This document shows positions 1 through 64,000 of a stretch of 64,000 nt of DNA, piece by piece. Below the pieces are notes generated by a model, which was given only the letters and a program-made list of their open reading frames with translations, was not told where the DNA came from and made no database searches. The position numbers and the translations under genes are program-made. Source of the DNA: Lytechinus variegatus. Taxonomy: Eukaryota > Echinodermata > Echinoidea > Temnopleuroida > Toxopneustidae. Within the stretch, counting starts at the first letter, position 1. Each line of letters opens with the position of its first letter. The DNA is taken from positions 19,234,179 through 19,298,178 of the forward strand of contig NC_054742.1 of NCBI RefSeq assembly GCF_018143015.1. Direction: 5' to 3'.

Positions 1-2645
1 AGTACATCTTCTAGAGGTAATGCAATTTGCTCCAACAAAGTTTATTAAAACAAATCCAAATTATTTCCTTAGATAAAGCTCTTCAAGATGTCTTTTCTAA
101 ACCTGACATGCAGAACATATACAAATATGAACAATTAAAAAAATGTGTGTGCCGGATACAGAAGAGACAAAAAATACATCTTGAAGAGATTTTAAACGAA
201 GCATATTTTTCTTCTATTGTTTAGTGCTTAGGTCCTCAAAAAGAAAATATTTGTTATATAATTTGAGCAATGAGCAATTCCAAAATTCACAGAGATATTG
301 ATCAATGGAAATATGATACTTAAACTGCATATTCTAACTAAACTGAGCAAAATTATTGTTTTGGGGGAAAATTAGAGGTAATACCATAGCCTTTTGCATG
401 AAGGGGGGGGGGGGGGGGTCATCAAAATCCTCACATAATTCTACCCAAGTGTACACAACACCCTTTAAGTTCAATCAATATTACAAAATAGTATCTAAGA
501 ATTGTTTTCCTCCCCTGCCTCCAAAGAAATTCCTGCATTAGCCACCATCAGCAGCTGTGCTGTGAAAGAATCTTATAGTTATTCTGTGTTTCTTTTATAA
601 AACACAATTGCAGTGTTATATTCAATTTTGAATCCTTTGTGTTGTGTTTATAATTATGTTTAGTTAACAGTGCGTGAGGGGATTGATCTAGACTCTAGCT
701 ATTTGCAATCAGTCATTAATGTGAGAAACCACTTTTACATGCCCTAAAGGTACTCTTTTCATATTTATTCTATTAAATCCAAATGTATGTTTTCAATAAA
801 TGGATCATACTATTACTGCTTGAATGCATGGAATCCATAAATAAAAATCTCATCATGACAGATACATTGCTGCTTACTGGAATTAATATTTCTATTTCAT
901 TGAATTGAAAACTTAATATGCATGATTAGATTCTCATAAGATAAGGATACATTTGTGAAGAGTCTGGTGAAAATCCTCCATTCAAACCATTCCCGTCGAA
1001 TGAAGTTTGACATGTCTTGTTGGCCAGATCTGACTTCAACACTAACAAAGAAATAATAAACAAAACAGAATAGAATAGACCAGTTAGTAGTTCACCCATG
1101 TCCTATATGTCATATAAATATGATAAAACAAGTAGAAGACTTTGCGAACTTATATCAGAAACCAATGATTTGCGAGATTAAGAAGCATATGTTGTGTCGC
1201 CACAAAATGAGGTGTTTCATGAACTATTTTTTATCCCCTCCATTAATGACTACCTCTGGTTAGGGAACATCAAGGAATGCATGAGTGAAGAATCTACTGA
1301 CTGATTCTGTTGGGCATTCCAATTTCTAGATGCATCTTTCTGCTGTGAAAAGTTACAGACAAGCTACCAGTATTCTCTTAAACCGCTTTTAATAATCAGT
1401 GAGACTCGGTGTTTGGAATCAAGTTTTCATAATTTGAGTGTTGCTATTTCAGGTTATCTTCTCAGAATTAATTATTAGTTGGTTTTAGATCTTGGTAGAA
1501 ATGACCATCCCCTGTAGATGCTCAGACTAGTTTATGACCTTGCTCCAAGGTTTTTAATCCCATCAAATACATGTTTTTATTCTGTCACAAGGGACATTAT
1601 ACACAATAAATCTTGGCATATCTTCATTATCCCATATTGCGTAGTCGTTTGATGTGCAGGTATTTTTTAAGTAACTTTGTAACAAAAGAATAGAAGATTG
1701 AGCTTAAAGATATTTGGGTGTGGCTCTTGCCATGTGCTCATCTGCATTACAAAAATCCAATCCTCACATAATTCATACTTGCATTACTTTACATTGTCAA
1801 GTGCAATACAAAATAAGATTGTATTTAAAATTCAATATATCAACAGAGCAAGAAAAGGTTGCAAGCCTATAGAGTCCTGTTGTTTAAGTTGTTCTCACTT
1901 AAACACTAGATCAGTTTCAATAGCAAAACCCGTTTAACATACTTTTTGCTGGCCTAACTTTGCTAAGGCTTAGCTTACATGGATCAGGAGATATAATGAA
2001 AAAGGCCCATCATCTGGAAATTATGATCTGATGAAAGGACTAATAGCTTGAATGGGTAAATCTTGAAAATAACACTCCAGGTGCTGTTCTATTCTAAACT
2101 TATTGGCTATAAGCTCAGTCTCACTCCCCAGGCAATAAAGGATCAAAGCTCACCCAGACACAAAGTTTAATTCAAAAAGAGCAGAAAAAAATCAAACAGT
2201 AAAAGTATATTGGCAAAGGTTTCAGGAATATCCATAAAATATTTTAAAAGTTATTAGAATTTTATTTCTTTGATTTGTGACGTCATATGCAAGCAGCTTC
2301 CCATGTATTGCAAATTATTTAAAAAAAAAAATTTCTCAAAAAATGGGGGTTTTAATATTCTACCTTCAGTATAAACAAATTATTCTCCTGAAAAAATACT
2401 AGCCATAAAGAACCATTAAAAAGTTTAAATTTGTGCATGTTTTATTACATAACACACGGGGCAGCGTTTTAAAATATTTACTGGATTTTCTCTCAAAGAT
2501 TCACCAATATTTGTTCTGGTATTTTTACATCAAGCTTTTCGTCAAGGAGTAATTGAAAAGGTGCACAATACATTTCGATTCTGTGGAGGTTTTTTCTTTC
2601 ACCGGGTTATCCAAAATAGTCAAGGCAGTTTCACCAAATACTTAC
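1..2645 (-). other. HAL-1 intron 1 (partial)
   Basis: Non-coding by position. It matches HAL-2 intron 1 (38368-41017), including homopolymer runs such as the G run near 403-417. A plus-strand open stretch at 68-224 (KALQDVFSKP start) looks like an old coding relic; its copy in HAL-2 intron 1 has an in-frame stop near 38496. No other gene seen. Confidence 0.7.
2150..2560. repeat. Degenerate short inverted-repeat element in HAL-1 intron 1
   Basis: Shares an internal segment with the intact element at 23086-23583: TTATTAGAATTT followed by TTTGATTTGTGACGTCATATGC on the left, and ATTACATAACACA with GGGGCAGC on the right. The termini have decayed. The orthologous copy in HAL-2 intron 1 is about 40545-40925, so this insertion predates the duplication. 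It sits within about 100 bases of the exon 1 donor. Confidence 0.6.
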
Positions 2646-2874
2646 CGATATGGACGAAATCATTTTCATCCAGAATATCAACAAGTAGGTCATCTGGATA
2701 GAGCAAACTTCCTCCTTGAGTTTTCCTGACTTCGGAGACATCATCTTCTTCATCGTATTGTTTCATAGAACGGTATCGTGAAAGCGTTTCCTTTCCCAAC
2801 CATGATATCGTGTTGTTGTTGTCTTTACAAGGAATAAGGATCCATTCTCCCCGTACTTTCACGTTGATCTTCAT
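2646..2874 (-). CDS. HAL: Histidine ammonia-lyase exon 1 (HAL-1, rest outside window)
   Basis: First coding exon of another HAL copy: 76 codons plus one base, ending at donor GTAAGT. It starts MKINVKVRGEW and continues with PCKD and SWLGKETLSRY, matching the N-terminal region of animal HAL. It differs from exon 1 of HAL-2 by one visible amino-acid change (Ile for Thr before SWLG). Exon 2 would lie just left of position 1, because 38303-38367 in HAL-2 precedes the base that pairs with position 1. Whether this gene is complete cannot be judged here. Confidence 0.9.
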
Positions 2875-2957
2875 CTTGTTCCTCAAATATTGATCAACAG
2901 AATAAAGTCAAATGTAATTGTCTTTTCTCCCGTTGATTCCCACATATATGTATCGCG

Positions 2958-61739: not shown

Positions 61740-61890
61740 CAGTCACATTTGCTCTATGGTGGCCATTTGATGAGAATTAAAATAGCCTTTTTATTTATTT
61801 TCATTCAAACCACTGATCTGAGCTGGTACAAAAAATGTTATAACGGCTGTTTTTGACTTGCCGTATGGCCGCCATAGAGCAAATGTGACT
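61740..61890. mobile_element. Short MITE in HAL-3 intron 13
   Basis: Ortholog of 28925-29078. The LINE insertion begins 9 bases past it. Confidence 0.72.
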
Positions 61891-61898
61891 AAGATATT

Positions 61899-64000
61899 GA
61901 TTGATTGATTTGATTGATTTGATTTTATTGTTTACTTCTGCAATTACATCATTCGTATATAATACATTTTCCATAACATAACAAACATAGTATATTGAGA
62001 ACTTTTTTTGGCATGAATCATAACTAAATGTACTAAAATTATCATTACAAACAAAACTGATCTCATACCAAATTAGTTAACATTTACAATTTGCAGAAGG
62101 ATTGTCATCATAAGCAGATTGCTTGAAAAAATGACAACCCCAGGTTAGAACTCATTGATTAATATAATACATTAATACAGCAGAATCGATAAACAGTTCA
62201 TTTCATGAAAAACAGCAGTAATGTAATTTGAGCAATGAAGATGGAGATGATAAGGATGAAGATGATGGTGAAATGGTGAAGATGAAGGCGATGGAGAGGA
62301 TGATGGTGATGATGCTTTAATGATGACACATCGACACAGAAATTTTACTTCAAATATTCTGATATCAACATAGATTTAACGTTTGCCTTAAATGAGTAAA
62401 GAGACGTGGATCTTTTTATAGATTCAGGTAGAGAGTTCCACAAATCAGGACCATGGTGTCTTATGGATCTCTGTGCAATAAGCAATTTGGGGTTGATTAA
62501 ATGGAAATTAGAAGAGTTCCGCGTAGGGTATGAATGGATAGATGTGTTCATAGTATAAAAATTGTGAAATGAAGGTGGGAGCATGTTATTTACGTATTTG
62601 AACATAAGCAGTAAGCTTTGAAATGAGTTTATGTCAAAAATAGTTAGAGTCTTTAGTTTATGGAATAATGGATTTGTGTGTGATAAATATTGCGAATTAG
62701 TACAAATTCGAATTGCTTTTTTCTGTAATAAGTATATTATATTAATTTTAGTTTTTGCACACGTTGCCCAAACTATATTGCAGTACGATATATACGGCAA
62801 TATTAATGAATTGTATAGTAGAACGAGTGTAGTATGAGGAATTATGTTTTTAATTTTGTAAAGTACACCTACGTTTCTGGAGATGTTAGTAGTTATACAA
62901 CGTATATGTTCATTCCAATTTAAATGTTCATCTATTGTGACACCTAAAAACTTTGTTTCTTTTTTCCTTTTGAGTGGAATATTATCTATGCTTATGTCGT
63001 ATGGAAACTCAGTAATATGTGAACTTGTATGCGTAAAATACATAAAGTTTGTTTTGTCTATATTAAGTGAGAGCCTATTACATTTAAACCATAAAGATAG
63101 TTTAGGTAATTCACGATTAAATGTATCTACTAAAGTTTCTAAACTAGTGTTTGAACAAAAAATGTTTGTGTCATCGGCAAATAATACAAATGATAATAAA
63201 GGCGTTACAGTAGTCAAATCATTAATATATATAAGGAAAAGTAAGGGGCCAAGGATCGATCCTTGTGGAACTCCGCATTTTATTGACTGAAAGTTAGAAG
63301 AAATATTGTTGTGAGTGACATATTGTTTTCTATCAGACAAATAACTCTCAAACCATGATAGTGCGATTCCCGAATTCCATAATTTTCAAGTTTTTTAAGT
63401 AAAATCTGGTGGTCAAGAGTGTCGAATGCTTTGCTTAGGTCCATGAATACTCCTATTATGTGTTCTTTATTTGTCATTGCATTTGTAATTTTATCGTATA
63501 TTTGTACTAAAGCCTGATCAGTTGAATGCCCTTTCCTGAATCCATATTGGTTTGAATTTAGAAACTGAAAAGTATCTAGGAACTTATAAAGTCTTTTGTA
63601 AATAATCTTCTCTAATATTTTGGATATGCTGGGGAGAATAGAAATAGGCCTATAATTTGTTATTTCGTGTGGATTGTCTTTTTTTAAAACAGGATTTACC
63701 TTTGCAATTTTTAGGGAATCTGGACATTTACCGGTGCTGATCGACAGATTAAAAATATGACACAATGGAGAGACAATATAATGTATGATCTGCTTAAGAA
63801 GGAAAGTACTAATTCTATCATATCCCTGTGATTTGCTGGATTTGAGATTTTTTGTTATTTCAATTATTTCCTGAACATTTGTGGGGTTAAATAATTGGGA
63901 AGAATTGATGGGTGTGGGAAGAAATTTTGCAAAACTTTTGGTTTGGGTCTGGCAAGGTTGTTAGCCAAAGAGGGTCCTATGTTAACGAAAAAGGAATCAA
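61899..64000 (-). mobile_element. CR1/L2-like LINE inserted in HAL-3 intron 13
   Basis: Homology to HAL-2 intron 13 stops at 61898 and is replaced by a minus-strand non-LTR element. Its 3' end is a short TGATT/TGATTTGATT tail (61899-61925). Then come about 420 bp of 3' non-coding DNA, with a GATGGTGAT-type simple repeat at 62235-62320, and reverse transcriptase from 62345 to beyond the window. The 5' end and any target duplication are not visible. Confidence 0.85.
62345..64000 (-). pseudogene. Reverse transcriptase of the LINE, frameshifted
   Basis: Minus-strand pieces in order: NYRPISILPSISKILEK, YGFRKGHSTDQAL and DLSKAFDTLDH (63765-63390), then CGVPQGSILGPLLFLIYIND, FADDTN (catalytic Asp pair) and FLGVTIDEHLNWN (63340-62970), and a C-terminus with SYPTRNS and GPDLWNSLPESIK ending at 62345. 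A one-base loss near 63375 breaks the frame between DHQILLKKL and the GVPQG part. A second break near 63955 with an in-frame stop spoils the upstream part. Family signature is CR1/L2/Jockey-type; exact clade not assigned. Confidence 0.88.

What the first reader, a model, noticed from the sequence alone, without database searches (positions are those of the whole stretch)
1..64000. Histidine ammonia-lyase occurs as a tandem gene array with a 38.4-kb unit
Three HAL copies in head-to-tail order are partly visible, separated by the same intergenic DNA. The junction from intergenic DNA into HAL exon 19 appears twice (around 26050 and 58820), which a single-copy gene could not produce. HAL is usually taken as single copy in animals, so dosage or specialised copies would be notable.
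Basis: partly seen in the sequence, partly recalled or inferred. Interest (0 to 1): 0.75.

Follow-up and report, generated by a model that had tools for sequence, protein, structure and literature searches.

The report
Tripled sea urchin histidine-breakdown gene
A sea urchin carries what look like three working copies of the gene for histidine ammonia-lyase side by side, the middle one apparently a recombinant of its neighbours; a fourth partial copy in the window is most likely an assembly duplicate.

Summary
The window is Lytechinus variegatus chromosome DNA. The HAL tandem array is present in the assembly, with corrections. Three complete, intact, 20-coding-exon HAL genes (667 aa, 98.7-99.0% identical, dN/dS 0.11-0.14) lie head to tail on the minus strand: A (mostly left of the window), B (26058-41246) and D (right of it). 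The 12 kb before the gap repeats the 12 kb after it (0.3% substitutions), and the second contig starts with unit-B-specific variants, so C is most likely D assembled twice. There is no constant 38.4-kb unit: breakpoint-to-breakpoint units are 41.3, 32.9 and 50.3 kb. Both junctions share one breakpoint, pointing to one non-homologous tandem duplication. B matches D up to 29416 and A from 29677, as expected if unequal crossing-over near exon 14 made the third copy. The main rival is an assembler misjoin of two haplotypes with two genes each; raw reads would decide. New instance of a known kind.

The parts
951..2874 (-). HAL copy A, coding exons 1 (2646-2874, with ATG) and 2 (951-1041); exons 3-20 lie left of the window
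   Evidence: spliced alignment; product identical to P0001 [Lytechinus variegatus] over 667 of 667 residues
26058..41246 (-). HAL copy B: complete gene, 20 coding exons, 667 aa, TAA stop; exon 1 at 41018-41246, exon 20 at 26061-26213
58821..61700 (-). HAL copy C: exons 15-20 only, 4-bp insertion in exon 17, remainder cut off by the contig end; most likely a redundant copy of gene D (reg 171357-199231, right of the window)
21641..21643 (.). tandem-duplication breakpoint, junction unit A | unit B
54499..54501 (.). same breakpoint, junction unit B | next unit
29417..29676 (.). recombination interval: B is D-like to the left, A-like to the right; identical in A, B, D except one B-private site near its start; holds exon 14 (29556-29621)
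51977..63997 (.). 12-kb contig-end overlap, repeated right after the 500-N gap with 37 substitutions and 26 indel events
62345..63957 (-). two reverse transcriptase ORF pieces (non-LTR type by look) in the intron between exons 15 and 14 of C/D, absent from B
   Evidence: RVT_1 in both pieces; insertion seen

Best explanation
A cluster of three functional-looking histidine ammonia-lyase genes in the sea urchin Lytechinus variegatus, built in two steps. Step 1 (strongly indicated by the breakpoint): a segment with one HAL gene was duplicated head to tail by joining DNA without homology, from inside a dispersed repeat at its right end to DNA with no other match at its left end, giving A-D. Step 2 (inferred from the mosaic): A and D drifted apart by about 5-6% within the gene, then an unequal crossing-over near exon 14 between D of one chromatid and A of another gave A-B-D, in which B has its 3' half (exons 15-20 and downstream) from D and its 5' half from A. 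The fourth, partial copy (C) is an assembly duplicate of D. What the extra copies do is inferred only: most likely more of the same enzyme (histidine to urocanate).
For: Intact models: 3 of 3 complete copies have 20 exons, GT-AG introns, no stop, 667 aa; dN/dS 0.11-0.14. HAL identity: PF00221, PF12053 and TIGR01225 above curated cut-offs. Breakpoint: A|B, B|C and the start of contig 2 switch at the same place from the sequence right of D to the sequence left of A; the full 301-bp junction has 3 places in the genome, all here, and each half alone has one further place at 97-98% (right of D, left of A); at the right end of D, 32 of 36 weaker dispersed relatives align across the breakpoint, so the repeat runs through it and that end looks ancestral. 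Mosaic: of 974 informative sites, 320 B=D and 44 A=B left of the switch, 78 and 532 right of it; max chi-square 532 against at most 19.8 in 500 shuffles; B-private (A=D) sites only 128. Divergence: left of the switch B-D 1.4%, A-B 5.0%, A-D 4.9%; right of it to exon 1 A-B 2.0%, B-D 6.3%, A-D 6.1% (7,025-9,222 aligned columns each). The orientation of the mosaic is that of an unequal crossover product. C=D: C shares 64 sites with D against B, with 10 C-private and 8 D-private; contig-2 start shares 13 sites with B against A and D.
Against: No reads could be examined. A-B right of the switch and B-D left of it (1-2%) are below the ~3% heterozygosity given for L. variegatus (passage in PMC11310861), so a haplotype misjoin would give the same numbers. 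Minority sites (44 and 78) remain on both sides, some in a patch of A=B sites at 28952-29114, left of the switch. In the distal part (window 39.6-54.5 kb) A, B and D are mostly 1-5% apart with little preference, and a 4.9-kb segment is present in B and D but not A, so the history there is more complex than one crossover. B lacks the reverse-transcriptase insertion that C/D carry just left of the switch, so that insertion must be later or polymorphic. Only 19,323 of 32,857 B positions align to both A and D.
Confidence: 0.68

Rival explanations
1. The true array has two genes (A and D); the assembler joined haplotype 1's A-D to haplotype 2's A-D in the identical tract near exon 14, so that B is an assembly chimera.
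For: 1-2% divergence of the repeated parts lies below the ~3% heterozygosity given for the species; the switch sits in a tract nearly identical in all copies; the assembly shows a redundant contig overlap next door.
Against: The shared tract is only about 260 bp, flanked by a 52-bp deletion in D, a ~950-bp insertion in A and a ~4-kb insertion in D that long reads should separate (that long reads were used is recalled); no N run inside reg 1-164000.
Confidence: 0.17
2. C is a real fourth HAL copy, or a young pseudogene, and D follows an unassembled stretch.
For: C carries its own 4-bp insertion in exon 17; any break in a tandem array can look like a dovetail.
Against: C-D substitutions are 37 in about 12,000 (9 of them within 12 bp by a poly-C run), about ten times below the heterozygosity given; substitution:indel is 1.4 against 2.6-3.0 between true copies and ts:tv 0.54 (13:24) against 0.88-1.00 (different aligners, and one search used an incomplete A-B chain); contig 2 begins with unit-B-specific variants.
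Confidence: 0.07
3. B arose by tandem duplication and a gene-conversion tract from A later overwrote its middle, rather than by crossover.
For: A-likeness of B is clear only over about 29.7-39.6 kb; further right the preference is weak, and B and D share a 4.9-kb segment absent from A.
Against: Needs a tract of about 10 kb and a separate event for the third copy; crossover explains both at once.
Confidence: 0.12
4. The whole cluster is haplotypic false duplication of one HAL gene.
For: Copy divergence (1-6%) is of the order of sea urchin allelic divergence.
Against: Junctions with one exact non-homologous breakpoint; apart from a few dispersed matches the flanks have no repeats of 600 bp or more at 85% or more in the 264 kb examined; A-B-C lie on one stretch without N.
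Confidence: 0.04

Closest known systems
Tandem gene arrays grown by unequal crossing-over with hybrid genes (human red/green opsins, haptoglobin; recalled)
   Same: Head-to-tail units; a hybrid copy with an intragenic switch point
   Different: Here a housekeeping catabolic enzyme in a sea urchin; the hybrid protein is nearly identical to both parents
SpTransformer clusters of Strongylocentrotus purpuratus (PMC8634487, passages seen)
   Same: Sea urchin tandem clusters; the paper discusses unequal crossing over, gene conversion and varying copy number
   Different: Immune genes thought to be kept diverse; HAL copies are conserved (dN/dS 0.11-0.14)
HAL pairs of Diadema setosum (P0004, P0005) and Acanthaster planci (P0014, P0025)
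   Same: Two HAL proteins per species on contigs of the same length
   Different: 81.0% and 89.6% identical, i.e. older; the tree places each pair in its own lineage's clade; their spacing was not examined
Tandem PAL genes of plants (title in the reference list of PMC9002059)
   Same: Same MIO enzyme superfamily in tandem
   Different: Phenylalanine substrate; plants

Membership tests
Histidine ammonia-lyase (HAL) | Aromatic amino acid lyase domain PF00221, full length | tested here: met
   P0001 (= gene A product): 611 bits, profile 1-465 of 466; B and D were not scanned separately
Histidine ammonia-lyase (HAL) | HutH equivalog TIGR01225 above cut-off, rival lyases and mutases below theirs | tested here: met
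   717.2 bits against 539.15; the six listed Tyr/Phe lyase and mutase models fall below their cut-offs
Histidine ammonia-lyase (HAL) | Ala-Ser-Gly triad that forms the MIO cofactor | tested here: met
   ASG at 258-260 in A, B and D; role of the triad recalled
Histidine ammonia-lyase (HAL) | Catalysis of histidine to urocanate | not testable with these tools
   no assay
Tandem array from one duplication | Same orientation and one shared breakpoint at every unit junction | tested here: met
Array expanded by unequal crossing-over | Middle copy a hybrid with one switch, in the predicted direction | tested here: met
   the part distal to exon 1 is weakly informative
Array expanded by unequal crossing-over | Read-level or population support for the hybrid | not testable with these tools
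   no reads held
Assembly false duplication (copy B) | Copies separated by a gap and matching end to start | tested here: not met
   no N run inside reg 1-164000
Assembly false duplication (copy C) | Copies separated by a gap and matching end to start at below-allelic divergence | tested here: met

The most novel reading that the evidence does not exclude
HAL copy number is polymorphic in L. variegatus through recurrent unequal crossing-over at exon 14, and the three-gene haplotype is kept for dosage (more urocanate or faster histidine breakdown, for instance for UV screening in a shallow-water urchin).
Probability: 0.12. Interest if true: 0.5.

Novelty: new member of a known kind. Interest (0 to 1): 0.3.

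Why it matters
It also warns that this locus holds a redundant contig overlap that would inflate a HAL count to four.

Tried and rejected
Rejected: a constant 38.4-kb unit; C as an independent copy; an exon 2 model with an in-frame stop from the human probe, replaced with P0001 as probe. I first took the breakpoint for the terminus of a repeat because genome hits ended there; the search with the right end of D showed that the repeat runs on, so that reading was dropped. An HSP chain that skipped a long A-B match was redone with overlap trimming for the mosaic. The COX1 search was not needed to name the species. Pfam found nothing in 5 of 8 scanned proteins, all window ORFs other than HAL and the two reverse transcriptase pieces; the ORFs of the flanks were listed but not scanned. 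Literature: the listings show no paper whose title or abstract start is about HAL duplication in echinoderms, and one search found 0 papers; one search listed 12 of 27. Only passages of PMC9002059, PMC8634487, PMC11066563 and PMC11310861 were seen; the L. variegatus genome paper is not held. Not done: a check of other 500-N gaps for redundant overlaps, expression, structure prediction, relatives' genomes.

Full report
Identity. The window is C3:19234179-19298178 of an 869.6-Mb genome in 33 contigs. The best protein match, P0001, is named 'histidine ammonia-lyase-like [Lytechinus variegatus]' on a contig of 75,777,787 bases, the length of C3. I fetched 100 kb on either side and use reg coordinates (reg = window + 100,000).

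Genes. A spliced alignment with P0001 gives 20 coding exons with GT-AG introns and no stop or frameshift in three copies: A (reg 85960-102874), B (window 26058-41246) and D (reg 171357-199231). A gives P0001 exactly; B differs from it at 7 and D at 8 of 667 residues. Pairwise dS is 0.033 (A-B), 0.046 (A-D), 0.044 (B-D); dN/dS 0.11-0.14. All three carry the ASG triad. The product of A passes PF00221, PF12053 and the HutH equivalog TIGR01225. In the genome, 16 of 16 PF00221 matches, 4 of 4 exon-17 matches and 3 of 3 exon-7 matches lie in this cluster. In a 20-protein tree the three form one clade apart from Diadema (support 100/99), so the triplication is later than that split as far as these rows show; closer urchins were not among the listed hits.

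Copy C. The only N run in the 264 kb is 500 bases at reg 164001-164500, starting one base past the window. Reg 151977-163997 matches 164501-176524 at 99.3%, with 37 substitutions (9 of them within 12 bp by a poly-C run) and 26 indel events; ts:tv is 13:24, whereas true copies show ratios of 0.88-1.00 and 2.6-3.0 substitutions per indel (BLAST pieces, not the same aligner). The C fragment holds exons 15-20 and a 4-bp insertion in exon 17. The first 2.5 kb of the second contig share 13 variants with unit B against A and D, with 1 private difference in the gap-free columns of that four-way alignment; in the longer three-way alignment with A and B, 40 sites join it to B against A and 12 set it apart from both, none joins it to A. 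So contig 2 most likely begins inside the end of unit B, and C equals D.

Step 1. The sequences at A|B, B|C and the start of contig 2 match the right end of D up to reg 121641/154499/217384 and the left end of A from reg 80375 on. The junction as a whole occurs 3 times, all here; its halves (bases 1-149 and 151-301, so without overlap) each have one further place at 97-98%, and the left half also has 35 weaker matches elsewhere in the list. With the right end of D as query, 32 of the 36 weaker dispersed matches align across the breakpoint, so the repeat is whole there. This is the footprint of one tandem duplication by non-homologous joining. Units between breakpoints are 41.3, 32.9 and 50.3 kb; the differences are large insertions and deletions.

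Step 2. Over 19,323 positions of B aligned to both A and D there are 398 B=D, 576 A=B and 128 A=D sites. The best single switch, after 29416, separates 320:44 from 78:532 (B=D:A=B; max chi-square 532, shuffled maximum 19.8 in 500). A 52-bp deletion in D that B lacks narrows the switch to about 29417-29676, around exon 14. Divergence on the recently shared sides is 1.4% (B-D, left) and 2.0% (A-B, right to exon 1), against 4.9-6.3% for the other comparisons; distally it is 1.0% A-B, 2.3% B-D, 1.6% A-D. The direction (left half from the right-hand gene, right half from the left-hand gene) is what unequal crossing-over in a two-gene array gives.

Limits. Heterozygosity of about 3% is given for L. 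variegatus in a passage of PMC11310861; Diadema setosum has 2.11% (passage of PMC11066563). So the 1-2% parts are within allelic range. Hence the three-gene state may be polymorphic, and a misjoin of two haplotypes cannot be excluded without reads. Minority sites remain on both sides of the switch, and distal to exon 1 the preference is weak and large indels do not follow the A-B grouping.

Function. Function is inferred from family membership. Nothing here shows specialisation; increased dosage is the plainest guess. No expression data were examined.

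Noticed in passing
window 52772-53330 and 53704-54259; reg 216590-217143: Two copies of a very abundant ~556-bp repeat with ~45-bp inverted ends near the end of unit B; the right end of D has a single copy that is like the first on its left and the second on its right, as if the two had recombined. The label MITE-like is mine.
   Followed up: partly
reg 118666-120491 (window 18666-20491): A ~1.8-kb insertion near the A|B junction with an apparent 8-bp target duplication (GGTAAAAC), absent from B; hAT-like by look only.
   Followed up: partly
reg 199461-200686: A 1.2-kb insertion about 230 bp upstream of the ATG of gene D with apparent AATT target duplication, absent from A and B; could alter its promoter.
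   Followed up: no
P0002 and P0003 (Diadema antillarum): Two HAL proteins (628 of 652 aligned residues identical) that differ mainly in the exon-2 region, one of them vertebrate-like there; possibly alternative exons 2.
   Followed up: no
window 14908-15730: A tandem repeat block (9 listed copies with 31/83/114-base spacing) within unit A.
   Followed up: no
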